The notes under the pieces are model-generated. The model ran no database searches and was not told the origin of the DNA. It worked only from the letters and a program-made list of their open reading frames with translations. Made by a program: the position numbers and the translations under genes. A stretch of DNA of 36,347 nucleotides from an uncultured Rhodospirillales bacterium (lineage in GTDB: Bacteria > Pseudomonadota > Alphaproteobacteria > Acetobacterales > Acetobacteraceae), in assembly GCA_903835235.1 (NCBI GenBank), contig CAILMF010000031.1, positions 1-36,347 on the forward strand. Reading direction: 5' to 3'. The stretch's first letter is position 1, and every line of letters starts with the position of its first letter. This document shows, one piece after another, positions 138 through 13,068 of the stretch.

Positions 138-1010
138 CTAAACGCCGTAGCGCTTGAACCAGGCCAGCATGCGCTGCCAGCCATCCTCGGCCGCTTCGCG
201 CCGGTAGGTCGGCCGGTAGTCGGCGTGGAAGCCGTGCGGAGCCTCCGGGTAGACATGGATTTCCACCGTCTTGCCCGCCGCCTTCGCCTTGGCTTCCGCC
301 GCCCGCACGCTGTCCACGGGAATGCCGGTATCGGCGCCGCCATACAGGCCCAGCAGCGGGCAGTTCAACTGGCCGGCCAGGTCGGTCGCCGTCTGCGGCT
401 GGATCGGGCTGGTCGCGCCGCCGACCGGTCCATACCAGGCCACCGCGGCCTTGATCTGGTTGTTGCTGGCGGCGGTCAGCCAGGTGTTGCGGCCACCGCG
501 GCAGAAGCCGGTGACGGCAACGCGGGCGGTATTGCCGCGCCCGCTGGTCTCGGCCCAGGCCAGCGCCCAGTTGACATCGGATTGCAGCGTGGCGTCCGGC
601 GCCTTGCTGATGACGTCGCGGATGATGGTCGGCACGTCCGTCATCTTCGAGAGGTCGCCGAGGCGGGCGTAGAATTCCGGCGCGATGGCAAGGTAGCCCT
701 GCTTGGCCAGGCGGCGGCAGGTGTCCTTGATGTACTCGTGGACGCCGAAGATTTCCTCGTGCACCAGCACCACCGGGTGCCTGCCGCGGCCAGCGGGGGA
801 GGCGACGTAGGCCGGGATATGGCCATCGGAGACCGGGATCTGCACCTCGCCGGCCAGCAGGCCGGTGCTGTCGGTGTGGATCGGTGCGGCCTGGCCATGG
901 GCGGTGGCCATGGTGAAGCCCGCCATCAGCGTGCCCATGACGAAGCCGCGCCGCGCCGGCGTGCCCAGCGCCGCGGGTTGCAGGCCATTCAGTCCCAGCA
1001 ATCCGTCCAT
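138..1010 (-). CDS. Dienelactone hydrolase family protein, Tat-type exported
   Basis: A 290-residue alpha/beta hydrolase of the dienelactone hydrolase family. The family hydrolyses esters or lactones with a Cys-Asp-His triad. All three residues are visible: C170 in GFCRGG, D227 in GGADTGIP and H259 in PHGFH. The N-terminus carries a twin-arginine-like stretch (ARRGFVM) followed by a hydrophobic segment ending AHGQA. Export to the periplasm is therefore likely, which is less usual for this mostly cytoplasmic family. The start is supported by GAGGAGA about 8 bases upstream. It is divergent from the dioxygenase at 1163, with 152 bases between them. The true substrate cannot be read from the sequence. 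Family assignment is firm; export is inferred. Confidence 0.88.
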   Translation of the reverse strand: MDGLLGLNGLQPAALGTPARRGFVMGTLMAGFTMATAHGQAAPIHTDSTGLLAGEVQIPVSDGHIPAYVASPAGRGRHPVVLVHEEIFGVHEYIKDTCRRLAKQGYLAIAPEFYARLGDLSKMTDVPTIIRDVISKAPDATLQSDVNWALAWAETSGRGNTARVAVTGFCRGGRNTWLTAASNNQIKAAVAWYGPVGGATSPIQPQTATDLAGQLNCPLLGLYGGADTGIPVDSVRAAEAKAKAAGKTVEIHVYPEAPHGFHADYRPTYRREAAEDGWQRMLAWFKRYGV

Positions 1011-1162
1011 CAGTCGTCTCCTCGTTTTCGGGGTGTCCGGGATTCGCCGGCGCGATCGATGTGGTTAGCGTGTGGGAAATTTCAACACGCGCCACCCGGG
1101 CGGCGTGGTTGCCGGCGGTGCCGGCGCATGCTTGCATCCGCGGGCATGTGGAGGGAACGCTG

Positions 1163-2236
1163 ATGCGGCCGATTAGCGCCGGCAGTCGGCCGGAATGGAA
1201 CGCAGCGGAGTTGGCCGCCGACCCCAGCTGGTTGTTCACCCTGACCGAAGCCGGCGCCCGCGACCTGCTGGGCGCCACCCGTGCCGCCTTCCGTGAAGGC
1301 CAGCCGCTGCTGGGCTACCGCCGCGGTGATTTCGACCTGGGCGGCGCCCTGCCGACCCTGCGCGCCGCCTTCGAGGAGCAGCGCAGCGGCCGCGGCCTGG
1401 CGCTGGTGCGCGGCCTGCCGCGGGAGGGCGTTTCCCAAGAAGAATTCGAGCTGATGACCTGGGCCATCGGCCTGCATTTCGGCGTGGCGCGGCCGCAGGG
1501 CAAGCAGACCCACTATGTCAGCCGGGTGGAGAATGCCGGCAACGCCTACCGCACCGGCACTGGGCGCGGCTACAACAGCAATGCCGACCTGGATTTCCAT
1601 ACGGACACGTCAGATGTCGTGCTGCTGGCCTGCTACAACGACGCGCTGGCCGGCGGCATGAGCATGGCGACGTCAACGCTGGCCGCGCACAACACCATGG
1701 CGCGCGAACGGCCCGACCTGGCGGAGCGGCTGCACGACACCTATTGCTTCTCTCGCCAGGGCGAGCAGGCCGCCGATGAAGGCGCCTTCCTGACCTGCCC
1801 GGTGGTGGCGGAACGGGATGGCCGGGTCTTCGGCCGCTGGAACCGCAACCGGCTGAAGCACGCCCAGGGCATGGCGGGCGTGCCGGACCTGACACCGGCC
1901 CAGGCCGAGGCGCTGGCGCTGCTGGATGCGCTGATGCGGCGGGACGACCTAATGTTCAGCACCTGGCTGCGCCCGGGCGACCTGCAACTGATGAACAACC
2001 ACGCCTGCGTCCACAGCCGCACCGAATTCGACGACCATGCCGCCCCCGAACGCCGCCGGCTGCTGTTCCGCCTGTGGCTGGCGCCGCCGGACAGCTACCG
2101 CCTGCCAGACGGCTTTCGGGACGCCTTCAAGCGGGTGGAACCAGGCACCGTGCGCGGCGGCTTCATCGGCCAGAACCACACCGCGGCCTGCTGCGCCTTC
2201 GAGGCCCGGGCGGCGGCCGACCTGGGCATGCAGTAG
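1163..2236 (+). CDS. TauD/TfdA-like Fe(II)/2-oxoglutarate dioxygenase
   Basis: A 357-residue member of the TauD/TfdA (CsbH/gamma-butyrobetaine hydroxylase-like) fold. These enzymes use Fe(II), O2 and 2-oxoglutarate to hydroxylate a small organic substrate. Iron ligands are seen as H146-x-D148 (FHTDTSD) and the distal H284 (NNHACVHSR). R303 in LLFRLWL is the expected 2-oxoglutarate anchor. The frame is open upstream to 1061, but the ATG at 1163 is chosen because GGAGGG lies 8-13 bases before it and homologous proteins of this kind begin near here. The upstream extension has no domain character. The substrate is unknown. A hairpin at 2306-2325 may end the transcript. Confidence 0.85.
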   Translation: MRPISAGSRPEWNAAELAADPSWLFTLTEAGARDLLGATRAAFREGQPLLGYRRGDFDLGGALPTLRAAFEEQRSGRGLALVRGLPREGVSQEEFELMTWAIGLHFGVARPQGKQTHYVSRVENAGNAYRTGTGRGYNSNADLDFHTDTSDVVLLACYNDALAGGMSMATSTLAAHNTMARERPDLAERLHDTYCFSRQGEQAADEGAFLTCPVVAERDGRVFGRWNRNRLKHAQGMAGVPDLTPAQAEALALLDALMRRDDLMFSTWLRPGDLQLMNNHACVHSRTEFDDHAAPERRRLLFRLWLAPPDSYRLPDGFRDAFKRVEPGTVRGGFIGQNHTAACCAFEARAAADLGMQ

Positions 2237-2605
2237 AGCCTGATCGGCTGAGGCGAATTCGCCGCAAGCCGGGAATGAGCCTCTCGAAAGCGGCTTGAGC
2301 ATGATCACCGCTTCAGGAAGCGGTGTGCGGCCCGGGCGCCACCGGCGCTGGGCCATGCATTCACGGCATGGTCACGTTGCCTTGGCTGGCCGCCCAATGC
2401 TTGGGCAATCTGCGCCAAAGCGGGCGTCAGCGCCAAGGCGGCGCTGCCCCAGCCATGCGCCAGCGTCAAGGCATCGGCGGCGATTGGCGTGGACTTGTTG
2501 CGCGCGCTGCCCTACCTGCCCGGCTTGGTCACGGGTGCGCTTCTTGCTTGCCCGGGGCCGACCGCCCGCCCGCTGCCCGCACGACCGAACCGCATCCAGG
2601 CCAAA
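2237..2605. other. Intergenic region of 369 bases with hairpin and palindromic repeat
   Basis: Between the dioxygenase and the large transglutaminase. It holds a 19-base palindromic motif (2249-2267) repeated in inverted orientation at 6048-6066, and a GC-rich hairpin (2306-2325). A minus-strand frame open at 2305-2511 lacks an ATG and is treated as unproven. The transglutaminase frame itself is open back to 2489, but that extension looks non-coding. No convincing promoter was found. Confidence 0.5.
2306..2325 (+). terminator. Hairpin, possible terminator of the dioxygenase
   Basis: A perfect 8-base stem (CACCGCTT / AAGCGGTG) with a 4-base loop lies 70 bases after the dioxygenase stop. There is no T-run, so intrinsic termination is only possible, not shown. 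Confidence 0.35.
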
Positions 2606-5600
2606 ATGTCCCTGCACGTCGCCCTGCACCACCGCACCTCCTACAAGTATGAGCGCGCCGTCACGCTGGGGCCGCAGACCATCCGGCTGCGCCCGGCGCC
2701 GCATGCCCGCACGCCCATCATCAGCTACGCGCTGAAGATCGCGCCCCAACCGCACTTCCTGAACTGGATGCAGGACCCGCAGGGCAACTTCCTCGCCCGC
2801 GTGGTCTTCCCGGAACGGGTCACGCATTTCGACGTCACGGTCGATCTCGTCGCCGACATGGCGACCATCAACCCCTTCGACTTCTTCCTGGAGCCAGAGG
2901 CAGAAACCTTCCCCTTCACCTACGACCCGGTGCTGGAGGAGGAACTGGCGCCGTTCCGCAAATGCGCGCCGGTCGGCCCGCTGCTGAAGGGCTTCCTGGC
3001 CGGCGTTCCGCGGGAGCCGAAGCGCACCATCGACGTGCTGATCGACCTGAACCGGCAGATCCAGGAGCGCACCGAATACGTCGTGCGGCTGGAACCTGGC
3101 GTCTGGACACCCGAGGAAGTGCTGGGCAAGCAGAAGGGCAGCTGCCGCGACAGCGCCTGGCTGCTGGTGCAGGTGCTGCGCAACCTCGGCTTCGCCGCCC
3201 GCTTCGTCAGCGGCTACCTGATCCAGCTGGTGCCGGATGTGAAGCCGGTGCAGGGCGCCGAGGGGCCGAGCAGCGACTTCACCGACCTGCACGCCTGGGC
3301 CGAGGTCTACCTGCCCGGCGCCGGCTGGATCGGGCTGGACGCGACCTCCGGCCTGATGGCGGGCGAGGGGCATATCCCGCTGGCAGCCAGCCCGGAGCCG
3401 GCTTCGGCCGCGGCCATCTCCGGCATGGCGGAACCGGCCGAGACCGAGTTCGACTTCGCGATGTCCGTGACGCGGGTGAAGGAAACGCCCCGCGTCACCA
3501 AGCCGTACACGGAACGGCAATGGCAGGACATCCTGGCCGCCGGCCAGCGCGTGGACGTGGCGCTGAAGGCTGGCGACGTGCGCCTGACCATGGGCGGCGA
3601 GCCGACCTTCATCGCCGCCGACGACATGGACGCGGCGGAATGGAACACGGATGCGCTGGGGCCGACCAAGCGCGCCTATGCCGGCCGGCTGCTGCGCCGC
3701 CTGGTGCCGAAGTGGTCGCCGGGCGCCGCGCTGCAATACGCCATGGGCAAGCACTACCCCGGTGAGCAATTGCCGCGCTGGGCGCTGTATTCCCATTGGC
3801 GGACGGATGGCGAGCCGGTGTGGCGCAATCCCGAGCTGCTGGCCTCCGACGACGACCGCGACGACGCCTCGGCCACCGAGGCCGCCCGCTTCGCCGGCCT
3901 GCTGGCCGAGCGGCTGCAGGTGGACCCGTCATTGGTCAACCCGGCCTATGAGGACATCCACTACTACCTGTGGAAGGAGCATCGCCTCCCGGCCAATGTG
4001 GTGGTGGAAGACGCCCGCCTGCGCGATCCCCTCGAGCGGGAGCGGATGGCAAAAGTGTTTGCCCAGGGGCTGGCCAGCCCGGTCGGCAGCGTGCTGCCGC
4101 TGCGCCGGGTCTGGCAGGACGGCAATCGCCGCTGGCAGTCGGGCCGTTGGTTCTTCCGCGGCGACCACATGTTCCTGATACCCGGCGACAGCCCGGTCGG
4201 CCTGCGCCTTCCGCTGGAAAGCCTGCCCTGGGCCGACCCGGCCAGCATTCAGGCCGAGTATGAGCGCGACCCCTTCGAGACCCTGCCGCCGCTGCCGCCG
4301 CACCAGGCCTTCCGCCGCGTGCCGGTGCCGGGCGGCGAGGGCGTGAACCCCTACCAGCGCGCCCATGCGCAGCGTGGGCCGCAAGGCCAGGGCGGCGCCG
4401 GCATGGGTGATGGCCTGGACGCGTTCCGCCCGCGCGCGCAGGAACTGCCGGTGGTCGGCCGGGGCGACCCTGAACTGGTCCGCACCGCGCTGGCGGTGGA
4501 AGCCCGTGGCGGGCTGCTGCACGTCTTCTACCCGCCGCTGATGCAGGCCGAGGACTGGCTGGACCTGACCGCCGCGGTGGAGGACATCGCCGAGGAGATG
4601 GGCCGCAAGGTGATCCTGGAAGGCTACCTGCCGCCGCGCGACCCGCGCCTGACCCATTTCTCCGTCACGCCCGACCCCGGCGTCATCGAGGTCAACATCC
4701 ACCCCTCGGCCAGCTGGGCCGAGCATGTGGACCGCACCGAGACGCTGTACGAGGAAGCCCGCCAGGTCGGCCTGGCGGCCGAGAAGTTCATGCTGGACGG
4801 CAGGCACGTGGGCACCGGCGGCGGCAACCACATCGTCATGGGCGCGGCCCAGGCCAGCGACAGCCCCTTCCTGCGCCGGCCGGACCTGCTGAAGAGCCTG
4901 CTGGGCTTCTGGCACAACCACCCGAGCATGAGCTACCTGTTCAGCGGCCTGTTCATCGGGCCGTCCAGCCAGCACCCGCGCATCGACGAGGCGCGGATGG
5001 ACAGCGTGGGCGAGCTGGAATTCGCCTTCACGCAGATCAGGCGTGACCAGCCCAGCCCGCCCTGGCTGGTCGACCGCGTGTTCCGCAACATCCTGGCGGA
5101 TGTCACCGGCAATACCCACCGCACCGAGTTCTGCATCGACAAGATGTACTCGCCGGACAGCAGCAGCGGGCGCCTCGGCCTGGTGGAATACCGCGCCGCC
5201 GAAATGCCGCCGCATGCCCGCATGTCCGCGGCGCAGACGCTGTTGATGCGCGCCGCCATCGCCGCCTTCTGGCAGCGCCCGTATGAGCGCAAGCTGGTGC
5301 GCTGGGGCACCCGCATCCATGACGACTTCCTGATGCCGCACTGGAACAACCAGGACTTCCAGGACGTGCTGGCGGAACTCGGGGACCACGGCTTTGCGAT
5401 GGACCCCGCCTGGTTCGTGCCGCACCAGGAATTCCGCTTCCCCAAGATCGGTGAGACCATGGTGCGCGGCACCGGGCTGGAACTGCGCCACGCGCTGGAG
5501 CCCTGGCACGTGCTGGGCGAGGAAGCCGCGGCCGGCGGGACCGCGCGCTACGTGGACTCCTCCTGCGAGCGGGTACAAGCAAAAGTGAGCGGCTGGGTGG

Positions 5601-5980
5601 AGGAACGCTACATCCTCGCCTGCAATGGCCAGGCGGTGCCGATGACGCGGACCGAGCGCGAGGGCGAGTTCGTCGGCGGGGTGCGCTTCAAGGCCTGGGC
5701 GCCGCCCTCGGCCCTGCACCCGACCGTGCCGGCGCAGACGCCACTCACCTTTGATATCTACGACCGCTGGACCGGTCGCAGCCTGGGCGGGCTGACGCAC
5801 CACGTCGCCCACCCCGGCGGGTTGAGCTACGAGTCCCTGCCGGTGAACGCGAACGAGGCCGAGGCCCGGCGGCGGACCCGATTCCAGGCCTTCGGTCATA
5901 CGCCGGGGCCGATGGAGCCGCCGGAGCCGGTGGTCTCGCTGGAGACGCCGCGCACGCTGGACCTGCGGCGCGGGGCCTGA
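2606..5980 (+). CDS. Large transglutaminase-like/DUF2126 protein
   Basis: A protein of 1124 residues. The N-terminal ~290 residues are a bacterial transglutaminase-like cysteine protease domain with its beta-rich leader (SLHVALHHRTSYKYER) and a full triad: C180 in GSCRDSAW, H229 in DLHAWAEVY and D245 in GLDATSG. The remaining ~800 residues match the DUF2126 family (VRLTMGGEPTF, GRLLRRLVPKWSPG, GTGGGNHIVMG, YLFSGLFIGPSSQHPR). That region has the look of a glutamine-synthetase/ATP-grasp-like ligase fold, as proposed for this family. The frame extends to 2489, but the ATG at 2606 matches the family N-terminus; the ribosome site there is weak (CCAGG). It is the first gene of the peptide-modification cluster. 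Its likely role, making or breaking amide bonds on an unknown peptide, is inference. Confidence 0.9.
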   Translation: MSLHVALHHRTSYKYERAVTLGPQTIRLRPAPHARTPIISYALKIAPQPHFLNWMQDPQGNFLARVVFPERVTHFDVTVDLVADMATINPFDFFLEPEAETFPFTYDPVLEEELAPFRKCAPVGPLLKGFLAGVPREPKRTIDVLIDLNRQIQERTEYVVRLEPGVWTPEEVLGKQKGSCRDSAWLLVQVLRNLGFAARFVSGYLIQLVPDVKPVQGAEGPSSDFTDLHAWAEVYLPGAGWIGLDATSGLMAGEGHIPLAASPEPASAAAISGMAEPAETEFDFAMSVTRVKETPRVTKPYTERQWQDILAAGQRVDVALKAGDVRLTMGGEPTFIAADDMDAAEWNTDALGPTKRAYAGRLLRRLVPKWSPGAALQYAMGKHYPGEQLPRWALYSHWRTDGEPVWRNPELLASDDDRDDASATEAARFAGLLAERLQVDPSLVNPAYEDIHYYLWKEHRLPANVVVEDARLRDPLERERMAKVFAQGLASPVGSVLPLRRVWQDGNRRWQSGRWFFRGDHMFLIPGDSPVGLRLPLESLPWADPASIQAEYERDPFETLPPLPPHQAFRRVPVPGGEGVNPYQRAHAQRGPQGQGGAGMGDGLDAFRPRAQELPVVGRGDPELVRTALAVEARGGLLHVFYPPLMQAEDWLDLTAAVEDIAEEMGRKVILEGYLPPRDPRLTHFSVTPDPGVIEVNIHPSASWAEHVDRTETLYEEARQVGLAAEKFMLDGRHVGTGGGNHIVMGAAQASDSPFLRRPDLLKSLLGFWHNHPSMSYLFSGLFIGPSSQHPRIDEARMDSVGELEFAFTQIRRDQPSPPWLVDRVFRNILADVTGNTHRTEFCIDKMYSPDSSSGRLGLVEYRAAEMPPHARMSAAQTLLMRAAIAAFWQRPYERKLVRWGTRIHDDFLMPHWNNQDFQDVLAELGDHGFAMDPAWFVPHQEFRFPKIGETMVRGTGLELRHALEPWHVLGEEAAAGGTARYVDSSCERVQAKVSGWVEERYILACNGQAVPMTRTEREGEFVGGVRFKAWAPPSALHPTVPAQTPLTFDIYDRWTGRSLGGLTHHVAHPGGLSYESLPVNANEAEARRRTRFQAFGHTPGPMEPPEPVVSLETPRTLDLRRGA

Positions 5981-6020
5981 AGCGTGCTGCCTTCGCTTGC
6001 GCTCCAGCGGCACGCTTCAG
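5977..6020 (+). terminator. Strong hairpin overlapping the transglutaminase stop codon
   Basis: An inverted repeat of about 13 bases (CTGAAGCGTGC / GCACGCTTCAG plus flanking pairs, one mismatch) encloses the stretch after the TGA stop, which lies in the left arm. There is no following T-run. It may be a terminator or a transcript-stabilising hairpin between the first and second cluster genes. Confidence 0.45.
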
Positions 6021-6178
6021 CGTCTTGAAGGTCGCGGGCTTCAACGTTTTCGGCGATTTCGCCTCAACGCATCCGGCTCAAGCGCGGGGCCGGCTTGCTG
6101 CCGCCGCTGCAACAAGGACAGGCAAATGCCCGCGGATGATTCCATCGGCGGGGATATTGCTTTAAGCATCCGGCCCGA

Positions 6179-8689
6179 ATGATCGAACCCCGGGATGAAA
6201 TGGTGGACGGCAGCGGCGGGCTGCGGCCGCCCTGGCGCCTGCTGCACGCGACGCTGACCGGATTGGGTCGCGACGTGCTGGCGGAACGTGGCCAGCAATT
6301 GGACCGCATCTTCCAGGATGAGGGGCTGACCAGCCTGCTGCCCGGCGCCGCGCCAGTCGGCTGGCGGTGCGACCCGATTCCGCTGCCGCTGAGCGCCGGC
6401 GAATTCGCCATGCTCGCCGAAGGCCTGGCCCAGCGTGCCCGGCTGCTGGACGCCGTGCTGGCCGATGTCTACGGCCAGCAGTCGCTGCTGGCGGACGGGC
6501 TGCTGCCGCCGGCCCTGGTCTACGCCAACCCGGCCTTCCTGCGGCCCTGCCGCGCCACCGAGGGGCCGGCCAAGCCACCGCGGCTGCACTTGTATTCCGC
6601 CGAGGTGATGCGCGACGTCGATGGCCAATGGCTGGTGCTGGCCGACCGCACCGCGGATGCCGCCGGCGTGGCCTATGCGCTGGAGAACCGGCGCGCCCTG
6701 GCCCGGGTGGTGCCGGAGCTGTTCCGCTCCACCCAGCTGCGCCGGCTGCGGCCCTTCTTCGAGACCTGGCAGGACGCCATGCAGCGCCTGGCGCCGCATA
6801 CCGGTGGCAACCCCGGCCTGGCGCTGCTGACCGCCGGCCCCGGCGACAAGCTGTGGTTCGAGCATGTGGTGCTGGCGCGGGAGCTGAGTTGCAGCCTGGT
6901 TGAAGGCGGTGACCTGACGGTGCGCGACGGCCTGCTGTTCCTGAAGACGCTGAAGGGGTTGCAGCGGGTGGACGTGCTGCTGCGCCGGCAGGATGGCCGC
7001 ACCCTGGACCCGCTGGAGCTGGAATCCGGTGCGGCCGACGGCATCCCGGGCCTGCTGGACGCCATGCGCGAAGGCAATGTGCGCGTGGTCAACGACCCCG
7101 GTGCCGGCTTTGCCGAAGCGCCGGCGCTGGCCGCCTTCATGCCCGCCCTGGCCCGCCACCTGCTGGGCGAGGAATTGCTGCTGCCCAGCCTGCCCGTGCG
7201 CTGGCTGGGCGACGCCGCGGCGCGCGAGGCGGTGCTGGCGGAGCTGCCGGAATGGCGCATCCGCTCGGCCTTTGATGGCACCGAGAACCCGGTGGCGGTG
7301 CATCAGCTCGATCTCGCGGCGCGGGCCGAACTGGCCACCCGCATCGCCGCCGCCGGCGAGGAGCATGTGGCGCTGCCGCCGTTGCGTCCTTCCGTGGCGC
7401 CCTGCGTCGGCCCGGAGGGCATGGTGCCGCGCCCGGTGGTGGTGCGGCTGTTCCTGGTGTTCGACGGTACGCAATGGCAGGCGATGCCCGGCGGCCTGGC
7501 ACGGGTGCTGAGCGAGCAGGACGTGATCACCGGCCGCCTGCCGCTGCATGCCCTTTCAAAGGATGTGTGGGTGGCGGCGGAGGAGGAGACCGAGCTGCTC
7601 GGCCCGGCGCATCTTGGCGTGGCGGCGTTGCCGATCCGCCGCACCACCGGCGACCTGCCGAGTCGGGTCGGCGACAACTTCTTCTGGCTGGGGCGCTACC
7701 TGGAGCGGCTGGAAGGCAATGCCCGGCTGCTGCGCCTGGCCATTGCCTGGATCGAGCGGCCGACACCGACGCCGCGCGAAGTGGCGGAATTGCAGAGCCT
7801 GACCGCCTGCCTGGTGGTGGCCAGGCTGGTGAAGGCGGAGGCCGTGCAGGGCCTGGGCCCGGCCGCGCTGGGCGCCGAGTTGCGCCAGGTGGCCGCCGTC
7901 AACGGCCCGCTGGCGGGCCTGTTGGAGGAGGTGCATCGGCTGGCCGAGCTGCTGCGCGACCGGCTGACCGGCGAAGTGCACGGCACGCTGAACCAGTCGC
8001 TGCGGACGCTCTCGGCTTCGCTGCACCGGGTGCGCGAGACCCGCGCCACTGCGAAGGGGCTGGAGACGCTGTCCCAGGCGATGACCGGGGTGTTGCAGTT
8101 CAGCGCCACCGTCGCCGGACTGGCGGCGGAGAACATGGTGCGCGGCGGTGGCCGACTGTTCCTGGACCTGGGCCGCCGGGTGGAGCGCGCCCGCGCCATC
8201 GCCAATGAACTCGCCTGCGTGCTGGACCAGCCGGGCGGGGTGAGCCGGCCGAGCCGGTTGGAGCCGGGGCTGCGGCTGGCGCTGGAGCTGCGCGACTCGG
8301 TGATCACCTATCGCACCCGCTACCTGTCCGTGCTGCAGGCCGGGCCGGTGCTGGACCTGGTGATGGCGGATGAGGGCAATCCGCGCGGCCTGGCCTTCCA
8401 ACTGGCCGCGACCCGCGACCTGCTGGCCGAACTCGGCGGCCGCACCGACAGCCCGCTGGCCGGGATGGCCGCGGCCATGCTGGATTCGGTGCAGGCGATG
8501 ACGCGCGACGTGCTGGCGGCGCCGCAGCAGGCCGGCGCGGCGGTGGCGCTGGCGCCGCGGCTGAAGACGCTGGCGGAGGCGGTGGCCGACCTGTCGGACC
8601 GGATCACCCGGCGTTACTTCGCGCTGCTGCCGGCGGTGCGCAGCCTGGGCGTGGAGGCCGAGGGCCGGCGCCTCAGGGGCATGGCGTAG
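6179..8689 (+). CDS. Circularly permuted ATP-grasp fused to alpha-E domain
   Basis: A protein of 836 residues. Residues ~10-470 are the circularly permuted ATP-grasp (COG2308/DUF404-DUF407) domain. Diagnostic stretches are DPIPLPLSAGEF, QRARLLDAVLADVYG, LLPPALVYANPAFLRPC, VVNDPGAGFAEAPALAAF and ARHLLGEELLLPS. From about residue 490 (LPSRVGDNFFWLGRYLER) to the end it is an alpha-E domain (COG2307/DUF403), all helical. In many genomes these are two genes; here they are one polypeptide. Family ATP-grasp proteins are predicted amide-bond-forming ligases (amidoligases) and alpha-E is their constant partner. The start matches the family N-terminus, although no good ribosome site is seen. The next gene begins 12 bases downstream, so one transcript is likely. 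Confidence 0.92.
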   Translation: MIEPRDEMVDGSGGLRPPWRLLHATLTGLGRDVLAERGQQLDRIFQDEGLTSLLPGAAPVGWRCDPIPLPLSAGEFAMLAEGLAQRARLLDAVLADVYGQQSLLADGLLPPALVYANPAFLRPCRATEGPAKPPRLHLYSAEVMRDVDGQWLVLADRTADAAGVAYALENRRALARVVPELFRSTQLRRLRPFFETWQDAMQRLAPHTGGNPGLALLTAGPGDKLWFEHVVLARELSCSLVEGGDLTVRDGLLFLKTLKGLQRVDVLLRRQDGRTLDPLELESGAADGIPGLLDAMREGNVRVVNDPGAGFAEAPALAAFMPALARHLLGEELLLPSLPVRWLGDAAAREAVLAELPEWRIRSAFDGTENPVAVHQLDLAARAELATRIAAAGEEHVALPPLRPSVAPCVGPEGMVPRPVVVRLFLVFDGTQWQAMPGGLARVLSEQDVITGRLPLHALSKDVWVAAEEETELLGPAHLGVAALPIRRTTGDLPSRVGDNFFWLGRYLERLEGNARLLRLAIAWIERPTPTPREVAELQSLTACLVVARLVKAEAVQGLGPAALGAELRQVAAVNGPLAGLLEEVHRLAELLRDRLTGEVHGTLNQSLRTLSASLHRVRETRATAKGLETLSQAMTGVLQFSATVAGLAAENMVRGGGRLFLDLGRRVERARAIANELACVLDQPGGVSRPSRLEPGLRLALELRDSVITYRTRYLSVLQAGPVLDLVMADEGNPRGLAFQLAATRDLLAELGGRTDSPLAGMAAAMLDSVQAMTRDVLAAPQQAGAAVALAPRLKTLAEAVADLSDRITRRYFALLPAVRSLGVEAEGRRLRGMA

Positions 8690-8701
8690 GGGCATGGCCT
8701 G

Positions 8702-9583
8702 ATGATCTACAAGGTGCGCCACACCACGCGGTACCGCTACGCCACGCCGGTGGACCTGGCCGCGCACATGGTACATCTGCGGCCGCGGGCGCTGCCCTGG
8801 CAACGGGTGCTGGCGGCGGGGCTGAGCGTGACGCCGAAGGCGGCGCGGCGGCGGGACGGCGTGGACCATTTCGGCAACCTGGTGACCTGGTTGTTCCTGG
8901 ACCTGCCGCACCCGGAATTCGAGGTGACGACCGAGGCGGTGGTGGAAGTCCGCTTCCCCGAGGCGCCCGCGGCCGCGGCGACGCCGGCCTGGGAGCAGGT
9001 GGCGGCGCAGGCCCGGCTTGGTGGGCCGGGCGCCTGGCAGGCGGCGGAATACTGCTTCGGCAGCCGCATGGCGCCGGCGCATGCGGGGGCCGGCGCCTAT
9101 GCCGCCAAGAGCTTTCCGCCGGGCCGGCCGGTACTGGCCGGGCTGCTGGAGCTGAACCAGCGCATCCGCAGCGAATTCCGCTTCCGCGCCGGCGTGACCA
9201 CGCTGAGCACGCCGATCTCCGAGGTGCTGGAGCGGCGCGAGGGCGTCTGCCAGGATTTCACCCATCTGATGATTGGCGCGCTGCGGCATCTGGGGCTGCC
9301 AGCGCGGTATACCAGCGGCTATATCCGCACCCGGCCGCCGCCGGGGCAGGAGCGCCGCCGCGGCGCGGACCAGTCCCATGCCTGGGTCGGTTGCTGGCTG
9401 GGCGCCGAGCATGGCTGGGTGGACCTGGACCCGACCAATGGGATTGTGGTGAAGGACGAGCATGTCGTGCTCGGCTGGGGGCGCGACTATGCCGATGTCA
9501 GCCCGGTGCTGGGGGTGATCCTCGGCGGCGGGGCGCATCGGCTGGAAGTGGGCGTGGACCTTGAGCCGCAAGGCGAAGGGTAG
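8702..9583 (+). CDS. Transglutaminase-like cysteine protease
   Basis: A protein of 293 residues (COG1305 type). The N-terminal ~150 residues form the bacterial transglutaminase leader domain (YKVRHTTRYRYATPV, HMVHLRPR). The catalytic half follows, with C183 in EGVCQDFTH, H226 in QSHAWVGCW and D243 in DLDPTNG. It is probably a peptidase or amide-bond-handling enzyme acting with the ATP-grasp/alpha-E protein just upstream. Such triplets were described as a conserved amidoligase gene neighbourhood. The last six codons and the stop lie inside the first unit of a 25-bp tandem repeat (9565-9664). The C-terminal residues EPQGEG are therefore repeat-encoded and may vary between strains. Confidence 0.92.
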   Translation: MIYKVRHTTRYRYATPVDLAAHMVHLRPRALPWQRVLAAGLSVTPKAARRRDGVDHFGNLVTWLFLDLPHPEFEVTTEAVVEVRFPEAPAAAATPAWEQVAAQARLGGPGAWQAAEYCFGSRMAPAHAGAGAYAAKSFPPGRPVLAGLLELNQRIRSEFRFRAGVTTLSTPISEVLERREGVCQDFTHLMIGALRHLGLPARYTSGYIRTRPPPGQERRRGADQSHAWVGCWLGAEHGWVDLDPTNGIVVKDEHVVLGWGRDYADVSPVLGVILGGGAHRLEVGVDLEPQGEG

Positions 9584-9664
9584 CGCGTTGCCGCACGGCG
9601 AAGGGTAGGCGCGCGCCGCAAGGCGAAGGGTAGCGCGTTGCCGCAAGGCGAAGGTTAGGCGCGC
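9565..9664. repeat. 25-bp tandem repeat, four copies (A-B-A-B order)
   Basis: Four 25-base units begin with GCCGCAAGGCGAAGG or a one-base variant, at 9565, 9590, 9615 and 9640. Units 1 and 3 are identical. Units 2 and 4 share a different tail and differ from each other at two positions, so a 50-base dimer was probably duplicated. The array covers the transglutaminase stop codon and most of the gap before the metallopeptidase. Confidence 0.93.
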
Positions 9665-9717
9665 GCCCTGACGCGTTTGTGTCTCAGCCCCGCGCCTGGC
9701 GCGGCGTTGCCCCGGGC

Positions 9718-10836
9718 ATGAAGCTCTTCCGTTGCCAGGCCTGCGGCCAGCTCCTCTACTTCGAGAACACCGTCTGCGAGCGGTGCCGCCACCAGCTCGG
9801 CTATCGCGCCGATATCGGCCTGCTCTGCGCGCTGGAGCCGGAGGGCGAGGCGTTCCGCACGCTTGGCCAGCCGGGCCAGCGGCGGTTCTGCGACAATGCC
9901 AGCCATGAGGCCTGCAACTGGCTGGTGCCGGCCGAGAGCGACAGCCGGTTCTGCCAGGCGTGCAGTCACAACCACCTGGTGCCGGACCTGACCGTACCGG
10001 CCAACCTGCCGCCCTGGCGGCTGATCGAGGCGGCCAAGCGCCGGCTGATGTATTCGCTGCTGCAACTGGGCCTGCCGGTGCCGACCCGGGCCGAGCAGCC
10101 GGAGATCGGCCTGGCCTTCGATATCCTGGCCGACCCTGGGGTGACCGGCGGCCCCAAGGTGATGACCGGGCACGACAATGGGCTGATCACCATCGCCCTG
10201 GCCGAGGCCGATGATGCCGAGCGCGAGCAGCGCCGCGCCGCGATGGGCGAGCCGTACCGCACCCTGCTGGGCCATTTCCGGCATGAAAGCGGGCACTACT
10301 ACTGGGACCGCCTGGTGCGTGATGGCGGCCAGCTGGAGGGCTGCCGCGCCGTCTTCGGCGATGAGAGCCTGGACTACAACGCCGCCCTCCAGGCGCACTA
10401 CGCCAATGGCGCGCCGGCGGATTGGCAGGCGCACTACGTCTCCAGCTATGCCACCTCCCACCCGTGGGAGGATTTCGCCGAGACCTGGGCGCATTACCTG
10501 CACATCGTCGACACGCTGGAGATGGCCGCGGCCTTCGGGATCAGCCTGCAACCGCAACTGGACCGGCGCGACGAGATGTCGGCTGAGATCGACCTGGACA
10601 GCTATGCCGCGCCGGATATCGCGACGCTGATGGCGGCCTGGATGCCGCTGACCTCGGCGATGAATGCGCTGAGCCGGAGCATGGGGGCGCGGGACCTCTA
10701 CCCGTTCATCCTCAGCCCCGGGGTGATCGGGAAGCTGGGCTTCATCCATGGCCTGGTGCGCGGCGGTGCCGGTTTCGGACAAATAGCCGGCGCGGCCGCG
10801 GTTGATGATGGAAATATAGATAAATCAGTCGGTTAA
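9718..10836 (+). CDS. Zinc-ribbon putative metallopeptidase (Peptidase_Mx type)
   Basis: A protein of 372 residues. The N-terminus is a zinc ribbon (C6-x2-C9 and C20-x2-C23), followed by a second Cys/His-rich patch (RRFCDNASHEAC, RFCQACSHNH). The catalytic core has H189-E-S-G-H193, a gluzincin-like HExxH motif, with E255 in DFAETWAHYLH as probable third ligand. This matches the zinc-binding metallopeptidase family found beside ATP-grasp/alpha-E/transglutaminase genes. The ATG at 9718 is preferred over a GTG at 9679 because it starts directly at the zinc ribbon; the ribosome site is poor for both. The last ~25 residues come from unusually AT-rich DNA (10800-10836) and look like a non-conserved tail. 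The peptide substrate is unknown. Confidence 0.88.
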   Translation: MKLFRCQACGQLLYFENTVCERCRHQLGYRADIGLLCALEPEGEAFRTLGQPGQRRFCDNASHEACNWLVPAESDSRFCQACSHNHLVPDLTVPANLPPWRLIEAAKRRLMYSLLQLGLPVPTRAEQPEIGLAFDILADPGVTGGPKVMTGHDNGLITIALAEADDAEREQRRAAMGEPYRTLLGHFRHESGHYYWDRLVRDGGQLEGCRAVFGDESLDYNAALQAHYANGAPADWQAHYVSSYATSHPWEDFAETWAHYLHIVDTLEMAAAFGISLQPQLDRRDEMSAEIDLDSYAAPDIATLMAAWMPLTSAMNALSRSMGARDLYPFILSPGVIGKLGFIHGLVRGGAGFGQIAGAAAVDDGNIDKSVG

Positions 10837-12039: not shown

Positions 12040-12996
12040 CTATTCCTTCCAGGGGTGCTGCGCCCAGAGGCGGCTATAGTTGGCGCGCAGGGCCTGCAAT
12101 TCCGCAGTGTATTCCGCCGGGCCGAGGAAGCGCAGCGGCAGGAGTTGCTGCTGGGCGCCGGCCAGGAATTCCGGCGTGGCGACGGCGCGGTGCACCGCCT
12201 CGGCCAGCCGGGCCAGCACTTCCGGCGGCAGGCCGGCCGGGGCGGCGACGCCACGCATGCTGCCCTCCACCACGTCATGGCCCAGTTCGCGCAGCGTTGG
12301 CACCTCGGCGGCCACCTCCCACCGGCGGGTGGCCAGCTGGCCGAGCGGGCGGACCACGCCCTGGCGCATGTCGGTGATCCCCTCGCCCATGTTCACCACG
12401 GCCAGGTCGATGGTGCGGCCCATCAGCGCGGTGCGCACCTGGGAGGAGCCGCCGAAGGGGATATGCAGGAAGCTGGTGCCGGTCGCGCGTTCCAGCGCCA
12501 GCATGGCCAGGTGGTCGTCGCTGCCGATGCCTGTCGTGCCGTAGCTGACCTGGCCAGGGCGGCGGCGGGCCTCGGCCAGCAGGTCGTCCAGCGACTTCAC
12601 CGGGCTGGCCGTCAGCACCCACAGCCCGCCGGGGTCGTCCACGATATTGGCAATGAAGCTGAAGCTTTCCAGGGTGAAGCGGGCCTGGCGCTCGATGGGT
12701 ACCGTCACGATGGTGGGGGTGTTGGTGAAGCCGATGGTGTAGCCATCCGGCCTGGCACGGGCCAGTTCGGTGAAGCCGATCTCGCCGCCGGCGCCGGCGC
12801 GGTTGACGACGACGACCGGCTGGCCGAGCTGCTTTTCCAGCACGCGGGCCAGCAGCCGGGCGGCGGTGTCGGTGCCGCCACCGGCGGCATAGGCCACGAT
12901 CATGCTGAGCGGGCGGTCGGGTTCCCAGGCGCGGGCCGGGCCGGCAACGAGCGGTGAGAGGGCGGCGGCGGCCAGCAGGTGGCGGCGCGTGGTCAT
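12040..12996 (-). CDS. TTT (Bug) family extracytoplasmic substrate-binding protein
   Basis: A protein of 318 residues of the tripartite tricarboxylate transporter receptor family (TctC/Bug). The N-terminus MTTRRHLLAAAALSPL...ARA is a signal peptide with two arginines. The mature part starts with the family pattern RPLSMIVAYAAGGGTDTAARLLA and contains the usual RPDGYTIGF and VSYGTTGIGSDDHLA segments. Family members bind carboxylates (for example citrate, glutarate or aspartate) in the periplasm. GGGGGAAA precedes the ATG at 12996. It is the first gene of a two-gene operon with the enolase-superfamily enzyme. No TctA/TctB membrane genes are present in the window. Confidence 0.92.
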   Translation of the reverse strand: MTTRRHLLAAAALSPLVAGPARAWEPDRPLSMIVAYAAGGGTDTAARLLARVLEKQLGQPVVVVNRAGAGGEIGFTELARARPDGYTIGFTNTPTIVTVPIERQARFTLESFSFIANIVDDPGGLWVLTASPVKSLDDLLAEARRRPGQVSYGTTGIGSDDHLAMLALERATGTSFLHIPFGGSSQVRTALMGRTIDLAVVNMGEGITDMRQGVVRPLGQLATRRWEVAAEVPTLRELGHDVVEGSMRGVAAPAGLPPEVLARLAEAVHRAVATPEFLAGAQQQLLPLRFLGPAEYTAELQALRANYSRLWAQHPWKE

Positions 12997-13068
12997 GGTG
13001 GTTTCCCCCGATGTTGGCGCGGAGACCAGCACGCCGGGGGGCGGCGGACAAGCCGGCCGCGCGCCGGG

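What the first reader, a model, noticed from the sequence alone, without database searches (positions are those of the whole stretch)
2606..10836. Four-gene amidoligase-type cluster with no known product and no Anbu proteasome gene
The sequence shows a transglutaminase/DUF2126 giant, a fused circularly permuted ATP-grasp plus alpha-E protein, a second transglutaminase-like protease and a zinc-ribbon HExxH metallopeptidase, all in one direction. Published comparative work on amidoligases describes neighbourhoods of circularly permuted ATP-grasp, alpha-E, transglutaminase and often the Anbu proteasome-like subunit, with predicted peptide tagging or peptide synthesis. Here Anbu is absent from the window and both transglutaminase types are kept, with catalytic residues intact throughout. 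The product, the substrate and the order of action are unknown. This is the best candidate for an undescribed biological system in the window.
Basis: partly seen in the sequence, partly recalled or inferred. Interest (0 to 1): 0.7.

Follow-up and report, generated by a model that had tools for sequence, protein, structure and literature searches.

The report
Predicted peptide-ligase gene cluster without Anbu
Four neighbouring bacterial genes encode enzymes that most likely make and break a small peptide-like compound; the gene family was predicted years ago but its product is still unknown, and a link to nitrogen shortage in related bacteria and to a sister gene set gives a practical way to look for it.

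Summary
Window 2606-10836 holds, on one strand: A, transglutaminase (TG) + DUF2126; B, circularly permuted ATP-grasp fused to Alpha-E; C, a second TG; D, zinc ribbon + Peptidase_Mx. Active-site residues are intact. Anbu was not found in the window or the whole genome; the one proteasome-family gene there is HslV.

The reading needs correction. A-type proteins were described in 2008 as TG fused to a carboxylate-amine ligase. Anbu tracks mainly a sister module, ATP-grasp + stand-alone Alpha-E, which this genome has on another contig. In 110 phylum genomes DUF2126 occurs with fused B (32 of 37, adjacent in all 32) and always with stand-alone Alpha-E (37 of 37); Anbu is in 21 of these 37. Strong sigma-54 sites precede DUF2126 in six beta/gammaproteobacterial loci, in line with a published NtrC regulon; the window has none that strong.

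Best reading: a cytosolic ligase/amidase pathway for a glutathione-like peptide metabolite, this cluster acting after the sister module. New member of a known predicted kind.

The parts
2606..5980 (+). ORF A, 1124 aa: Bact_transglu_N + Transglut_core (res. 6-246) fused to DUF2126 predicted amidoligase (res. 277-1121)
   Evidence: C180/H229/D245 and E695, N741, H742, R839, E841, E861, R863 identical in 61 of 61; model pLDDT 78, pTM 0.75
6179..8689 (+). ORF B, 836 aa: circularly permuted ATP-grasp type 2 (res. 68-443) fused to Alpha-E (res. 493-814)
   Evidence: PDB 3n6x E 4e-54; model pLDDT 85, pTM 0.81; Foldseek 3n6x TM 0.87 by target, then glutathione synthetases
8702..9583 (+). ORF C, 293 aa: second transglutaminase-like (papain-fold) enzyme
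9718..10836 (+). ORF D, about 372 aa: N-terminal zinc ribbon (PF10005) + Peptidase_Mx HExxH metallopeptidase (PF15887)
2533..2548 (+). weak GG-N10-GC sequence (GGGTGCGCTTCTTGCT, 9.4 bits), 73 nt upstream of A; not a convincing sigma-54 promoter
6145..6160 (+). weak GG-N10-GC sequence (CGGCGGGGATATTGCT, 7.9 bits) 34 nt upstream of B; the GG is kept in L004 but not in L005

Best explanation
A cytosolic ligase/amidase pathway that builds and takes apart a small glutathione-like peptide or peptide-amine conjugate, probably when nitrogen is short. Proposed working: B's glutathione-synthetase-type ATP-grasp domain activates a carboxylate as acyl phosphate and joins it to an amine, with Alpha-E as its dedicated helical partner; DUF2126 in A makes a second amide by glutamine-synthetase-like chemistry; the papain-fold TG domains of A and C reopen or exchange those bonds (the ligase-plus-amidase logic of bifunctional glutathionylspermidine synthetase/amidase); D hydrolyses the released peptide. 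The cluster is the second tier of a two-tier system: the sister ATP-grasp/stand-alone Alpha-E pair, on contig C26 in this genome, acts first and makes the substrate. Anbu is an optional partner, mainly of the first tier, absent here. Shown: gene content, residue conservation, B's fold, co-occurrence, sigma-54-type sites in other lineages. Inferred: the reactions, their order, the product, and nitrogen control in this organism.
For: Domains and residues. B's model matches 3n6x (TM 0.87 by target), eukaryotic glutathione and homoglutathione synthetases, the E-64 amide ligase Cp1B, YgiC and trypanothione synthetase, enzymes of small peptide-type amides (Cp1B paper passages; the others recalled). 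A's TG part matches 3isr, E 4e-13; glutamine synthetase and GmaS chains appear at Foldseek probability 0.69-0.94. 2008 assignment of the A-type to the carboxylate-amine ligase superfamily with a glutathione-like peptide prediction (passages). Coupling: DUF2126 x fused B 32/37 vs 1/73, adjacent in 32 of 32; DUF2126 x stand-alone Alpha-E 37/37 vs 26/73, adjacent in 24; DUF2126 x intact Mx 18/28 vs 2/32 in the 60-genome sample. Nitrogen: sigma-54-type sites of 14 bits or more within 150 nt upstream of A in 7 of 74 loci, 0.16 expected; five of these loci also carry one for the divergent ATP-grasp gene; B. cenocepacia DUF404/407, DUF403, TG and large-TG genes have table values of -8.2, -9.4, -9.4 and -6.0 in an ntrC mutant; P. 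putida Anbu-operon genes rise on nitrate versus ammonium and under nitrogen limitation; a predicted RpoN site precedes a CP_ATPgrasp_1 gene in Bradyrhizobium.
Against: No product, substrate or activity was tested. Homology of DUF2126 to glutamine synthetase was not reproduced by profile comparison (hhalign probability 0.2%; only 3 GS sequences) and the structural matches are weak (E 0.075-0.14). No strong sigma-54 site in the window, so nitrogen control here is extrapolated; only 7 of 74 loci have one. In the 60-genome sample 3 of 28 DUF2126 genomes show no stand-alone Alpha-E (G002, 85% complete; G017, 86%, with Alpha-E only in pieces; G035, listed as 100% complete), against strict dependence. 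D is local in only 25 of 80 loci and in variable positions. Work on the Y. bercovieri Anbu operon reported phosphate release from ATP by its ATP-grasp protein but detected no complex among the operon's proteins (passages).
Confidence: 0.5

Rival explanations
1. Protein tagging: the ligases attach a peptide or amino acid to proteins, and the TG, Mx (and Anbu where present) enzymes remove or degrade the tagged proteins, a Pup- or ubiquitin-like cycle.
For: Published hypothesis for the Anbu operon (passages); peptidase-type domains stand beside two ligase types; some genomes keep Anbu in the same locus (11 of 40 Anbu genes within 12 kb of DUF2126) and Anbu is modestly associated with DUF2126, 21/37 vs 19/73.
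Against: No recurrent extra gene identified beside the cluster (only ORFs of 100 aa or more in 31 of 80 loci, so a Pup-sized gene could be missed); Anbu missing from 16 of 37 DUF2126 genomes; the 2008 authors argued against protein conjugation for this class.
Confidence: 0.17
2. Nitrogen scavenging: the set mainly degrades peptides or proteins to release amino acids and ammonia, and the ligase folds serve a salvage or amide-exchange role.
For: NtrC/sigma-54 control in other bacteria, induction on poor nitrogen, metagenome association of TG_N/DUF403/404/407 with urea-metabolism domains, two TG-type enzymes plus a metallopeptidase.
Against: Two ligase-type domains retained with invariant residues make pure degradation unlikely; none of the four starts with an obvious signal peptide (by eye).
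Confidence: 0.2
3. The four genes are separate functions that merely lie together in this genus.
For: 15 of 59 loci lack fused B near A, and D moves around; A-B and C-D gaps are 198 and 134 nt.
Against: Phyletic coupling 32/37 vs 1/73 and adjacency in 32 of 32 across the phylum sample; the flanking TauD, DLH and MLE genes are kept beside the cluster only in the near-identical loci L004-L007, unlike the core.
Confidence: 0.07

Closest known systems
TG-DUF2126 proteins (Rv2566 class; PF09899; described 2008, PMC2588565)
   Same: Same architecture, TG-like papain fold fused to a predicted carboxylate-amine ligase domain; full-length Pfam match (paper passages).
   Different: No difference found in A itself; product unknown in both. 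That Rv2566-Rv2569c form the same four-gene set is recalled, not tested.
Anbu operon (CP ATP-grasp, Alpha-E, TG, Anbu)
   Same: Same ATP-grasp, Alpha-E and TG families.
   Different: Here ATP-grasp and Alpha-E are fused (Alpha-E 172 bits, against 313 bits for the stand-alone copy in this genome), DUF2126 and Mx are added, Anbu is missing.
Glutathionylspermidine synthetase/amidase, glutathione and trypanothione synthetases
   Same: B's ATP-grasp fold; a ligase paired with a papain-fold amidase is the proposed working analogy.
   Different: B matches the CP_ATPgrasp families and no GSP synthase family of Pfam; A's ligase domain is of another kind.
Rim and Rlo operons (ATP-grasp ligase + retropepsin, with inactive TG in Rlo; PMC12239564, passages)
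   Same: ATP-grasp plus peptidase plus TG-type domain.
   Different: No retropepsin or membrane TG among the proteins scanned; the TG triad here is intact.

Membership tests
TG-DUF2126 (PF09899) family | Full-length DUF2126 match with N-terminal TG domain | tested here: met
   1258 bits, profile positions 2-826 of 826
TG-DUF2126 (PF09899) family | TG Cys-His-Asp triad | tested here: met
   C180, H229, D245 in 61 of 61; the triad assignment itself is recalled
TG-DUF2126 (PF09899) family | Glutamine-synthetase-like ligase fold in DUF2126 | tested here: inconclusive
   Foldseek GS/GmaS probability 0.69-0.94 at E 0.075-0.14; hhalign not significant
TG-DUF2126 (PF09899) family | ATP-dependent ligase activity | not testable with these tools
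   needs an enzyme assay
Anbu operon system | CP ATP-grasp + Alpha-E + TG | tested here: met
Anbu operon system | Anbu in the operon or genome | tested here: not met
   no Anbu match in the 98.97% complete genome; the query finds Anbu in 11 of 60 genomes
Glutathionylspermidine synthetase/amidase | GSP synthase Pfam domain with CHAP amidase | tested here: not met
   only CP_ATPgrasp_1/2 and Alpha-E in B; the make-up of the known enzyme is recalled
Rim/Rlo operon | retropepsin-like peptidase, membrane TG | tested here: not met
   none among the seven proteins scanned around the cluster
NtrC/sigma-54 regulon | -24/-12 promoter upstream | tested here: not met
   no site of 14 bits or more in the window; weak 9.4 and 7.9 bit sequences only; RpoN is present in the genome

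The most novel reading that the evidence does not exclude
The DUF2126 cluster is the obligate second tier of a two-tier, nitrogen-regulated amide-ligase system: tier 1 (ATP-grasp + stand-alone Alpha-E) makes a peptide-like intermediate, and tier 2 (fused ATP-grasp-Alpha-E plus DUF2126 ligase with opposed TG amidases) extends it to an undescribed nitrogen-storage or redox metabolite, so three ATP-dependent ligases act in series on one unknown compound shared by several bacterial phyla.
Probability: 0.25. Interest if true: 0.75.

Novelty: new member of a known kind. Interest (0 to 1): 0.42.

Why it matters
The family is widespread (by record title, relatives in Alpha-, Beta- and Gammaproteobacteria, Nitrospirota and Chloroflexota; also Synechococcus elongatus among the control genomes), conserved, and without a product in the papers I could see. 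The nesting (stand-alone Alpha-E in 37 of 37 DUF2126 genomes of the phylum sample) suggests an order of action, and the sigma-54/NtrC link names a growth condition for looking for the metabolite. I did not meet either point in the papers listed by my nine library searches, of which I saw listings and passages only; the key 2009 paper is not held, so priority cannot be claimed.

Tried and rejected
Rejected: the proteasome-family hit in the own genome as Anbu (it is HslV beside HslU and HisB). Not found: a recurring fifth gene. An all-against-all comparison of 450 ORFs from 31 of 80 loci showed, in the 22 largest groups printed, no non-core family in more than 5 loci; those I identified were 2-hydroxyacid dehydrogenase, TctC receptor, class II aldolase, amidase, ABC transporter ATPases, GlgB, DEAD helicase and RF3, mostly in neighbouring lineages; a group of 108-152 aa ORFs in 5 loci and some smaller groups were not identified. 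Rejected: the TauD dioxygenase as a pathway partner in the style of E-64 biosynthesis; it is beside the cluster only in L004, L005 and L007. Changed my mind: in the 60-genome sample no Anbu lay next to DUF2126 (my reading by eye), and there was no association (6 of 28 vs 5 of 32, p 0.74); in the 110-genome phylum sample 11 of 40 Anbu genes lie within 12 kb of DUF2126 and there is a modest association (21 of 37 vs 19 of 73, p 0.003). Led nowhere: profile comparison of DUF2126 with glutamine synthetase; PDB search by sequence for A and D; NtrC-type dyads (the one in the cluster and those in L063, L064 and L075 fall inside coding sequence). Foldseek rows for diphtheria toxin (probability 0.10 or lower) were ignored as noise. 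Structures of C and D were not predicted; only two jobs were allowed. Rows dropped before counts: in the 60-genome sample the Alpha-E fragments of G001 and G017 were not counted as fused, and the degraded Mx copies of G025 and G026 (both without DUF2126) not as Mx; with them Mx would be 18 of 28 vs 4 of 32. Association p-values ignore phylogeny.
Full report
What is there. Window 2606-10836 holds four genes on the + strand. Pfam assigns them clearly: A (2606-5980) is Bact_transglu_N + Transglut_core + DUF2126; B (6179-8689) is CP_ATPgrasp_2 + Alpha-E; C (8702-9583) is a second transglutaminase-like protein; D (about 9718-10836) is a zinc ribbon + Peptidase_Mx. None has an NCBIfam model. Domain scores run from 57.6 to 1258 bits, which excludes chance. 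The gaps are 198, 12 and 134 nt.

Residues. In 61 aligned A proteins, the others 54-96% identical to the window copy, the TG residues C180, H229, D245 and the DUF2126 residues E695, N697, N741, H742, R839, E841, E861, R863 are all invariant. In 26 D proteins the two histidines of HExxH are invariant and the glutamate is kept in 25; six of eight conserved N-terminal cysteines are kept in 26 and two in 25. B's alignment of 39 also keeps a set of invariant acidic, Asn and Arg positions, which I did not map to ATP or metal ligands.

Folds. B's model is good (pLDDT 85.3, pTM 0.81). It matches 3n6x best (TM 0.87 by target), then glutathione and homoglutathione synthetases, Cp1B of E-64 biosynthesis, YgiC and trypanothione synthetase; none of the other rows among the 50 shown (of 660) has E below 0.02, so I see no meaningful match for Alpha-E. 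A's model (pLDDT 78.4, pTM 0.75) matches a putative cysteine protease, 3isr; glutamine synthetase and gamma-glutamylmethylamide synthetase chains appear with Foldseek probability 0.69-0.94 but E of 0.075-0.14. A profile comparison with three glutamine synthetases of this genome fails to reach significance, although the short stretch it aligns includes the E-x-R motif. So the ligase fold of DUF2126 is plausible, supported by the 2008 profile searches, and not independently proven here.

Anbu. The proteasome model finds one clear gene in the 5.97 Mb genome (98.97% complete), HslV next to HslU and HisB. A true Anbu from a relative (matches PDB Anbu chains 5nyj, 5nyf and others) finds no match at E 0.01 in this genome or in five congeners, and matches in 11 of 60 genomes, own included. 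So Anbu is absent beyond the window. This is common: 22 of 28 DUF2126 genomes in that sample lack it, and 16 of 37 in the phylum sample.

The sister module. This genome carries a second Alpha-E, stand-alone, at C26:14487-15413 (313 bits), next to a separate CP ATP-grasp gene; no ORF in the 14 kb read matched A or C at E 1e-4, a search that did find TG genes in five of the other nine loci beside it plus a further A-type TG in L090 counted among those five or more (L085, L086, L087, L088, L089, L090), and no Anbu is there. Across 110 phylum genomes, DUF2126 is found in 37 (22 genera), fused ATP-grasp-Alpha-E in 33, stand-alone Alpha-E in 63 and Anbu in 40. DUF2126 with fused B: 32 of 37, against 1 of 73 without; within 12 kb in all 32. 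DUF2126 with stand-alone Alpha-E: 37 of 37 (vs 26 of 73), within 12 kb in 24. Anbu with stand-alone Alpha-E: 39 of 40, within 12 kb in 33; Anbu within 12 kb of DUF2126 in 11 of 40. In the 60-genome sample the corresponding figures are 22 of 28 (vs 1 of 32) for fused B, 25 of 28 (vs 11 of 32) for stand-alone Alpha-E, 18 of 28 (vs 2 of 32) for intact Peptidase_Mx. The classes fused and stand-alone were set by me from open-frame length and score; fragments (G001, G017) were left out of the fused class and degraded Mx copies (G025, G026) out of the Mx class. The two samples share at least G000, G047 and G057.

Gene order. In 80 loci from titled genome records (best 80 of 136), 59 have at least 4.5 kb downstream of A; 44 of these have fused B within 5 kb on the same strand and 43 also another TG gene; 15 lack B there (in one of them, L030, it lies about 6 kb away). 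Mx is in 25 of 80 loci, downstream, between, or divergent upstream. A divergent separate ATP-grasp gene lies upstream in 18 of 66 loci with enough upstream sequence. All four in one direction: 15 loci, 14 with Acetobacteraceae-type titles (family of the genera recalled) and L007 titled Rhodospirillales. Of the genes flanking the cluster, TauD and DLH are kept in L004, L005 and L007 and MLE in L004-L007, and in none of the other loci; TctC-type receptors occur in L004-L007 and, at lower scores, in six further loci (L047, L062, L063, L064, L074, L078).

Regulation. A weight-matrix scan for sigma-54 promoters gives 45 sites of 14 bits or more over 3.14 million positions in the loci held; 7 lie within 150 nt upstream of A in 74 loci (window included), 0.16 expected. 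Six begin 26-29 nt from the aligned start of A, in loci titled Burkholderiaceae, Alcaligenaceae, beta- or gammaproteobacterium (L060, L062, L063, L064, L073, L075), and five of these have a second one directed at the divergent ATP-grasp gene; the seventh (L050) is 77 nt away. This agrees with B. cenocepacia, where I35_5080-5083 (DUF404/407, DUF403, TG, large TG protein) have table values of -8.2, -9.4, -9.4 and -6.0 in an ntrC mutant (PMC5491218, passages; that the large TG protein is DUF2126-type is likely but was not checked). P. putida Anbu-operon genes rise on nitrate versus ammonium (PMC8050072, passages) and show 11.1, 6.6 and 7.1 in what I take to be the nitrogen- versus carbon-limitation column of PMC3325844 (one passage). 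A Bradyrhizobium paper lists a predicted RpoN site before a CP_ATPgrasp_1 gene (PMC13207237, one passage). The window itself has only weak sequences, though the genome has RpoN, so nitrogen control here is an extrapolation.

How it probably works. Two ligase types stand beside two papain-fold enzymes and a metallopeptidase. The nearest understood logic is glutathionylspermidine synthetase/amidase (recalled): an ATP-dependent ligase and an opposed cysteine amidase. I propose that tier 1 makes a peptide-like intermediate, tier 2 (this cluster) adds further amide bonds, and TG and Mx enzymes remodel or recycle it. The order rests only on nesting of occurrence. Protein tagging and nitrogen scavenging remain rivals.

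What is known. The A-type protein was described in 2008 with a glutathione-like peptide prediction (PMC2588565, passages). Anbu operon work reports phosphate release from ATP by the operon's ATP-grasp protein, no Anbu peptidase activity on the substrates tried, and no detected complex (PMC6376114, passages). Mycobacterial Rv2569c has been reported as a cell-surface protease (PMC11081392, passages); that it corresponds to the C-type gene of this cluster is recalled, and its surface location would not fit a cytosolic pathway. My nine paper searches listed no paper that I saw name the product, within an open-licence library that lacks the 2009 paper.

Verdict. A real, conserved, functionally linked set; a new member of a known predicted kind; absence of Anbu is ordinary. 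The extra value lies in the nesting with the sister module and the nitrogen link.

Noticed in passing
L084:6488-9150 (own genome contig C26): Second CP ATP-grasp + stand-alone Alpha-E pair in the same genome, with neither TG nor Anbu found beside it; the next gene looks by eye like a Bug/TctC-type receptor.
   Followed up: partly
L060, L062, L063, L064, L073, short intergenic region between the two divergent modules: Back-to-back sigma-54-type sites facing outwards, one for TG-DUF2126 and one for the divergent ATP-grasp gene.
   Followed up: partly
L090:4935-8773 (unnamed relative G034): A genome without DUF2126 keeps an A-type TG as a separate protein next to Mx, divergent from an ATP-grasp gene, as if the ligase half had been lost.
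   Followed up: partly
G047:C1:2106072-2106953: Apart from a small Alpha-E fragment in G001, the only genome in either sample (60 and 110 genomes) with a fused-length Alpha-E frame but no DUF2126.
   Followed up: no
L008:8819, L009:8757, L010:8798: Strong sigma-54-like site (16.6 bits) conserved about 360-410 nt upstream of A in Siccirubricoccus and Paeniroseomonas; target unclear.
   Followed up: no
G025:C62 and G026:C4: Peptidase_Mx copies that look partial or broken; the G026 remnant lies about 2 kb from a stand-alone Alpha-E.
   Followed up: no
window 1061-2236 (+) and 138-1010 (-): TauD-family dioxygenase and dienelactone hydrolase upstream, beside the cluster only in L004, L005 and L007.
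   Followed up: yes
window 12040-13032 (-); L047, L062, L063, L064, L074, L078: TctC-type receptor genes lie within 10 kb of the cluster in the window and in six more distant loci; such genes are very common in these bacteria (recalled), so this may be chance.
   Followed up: no
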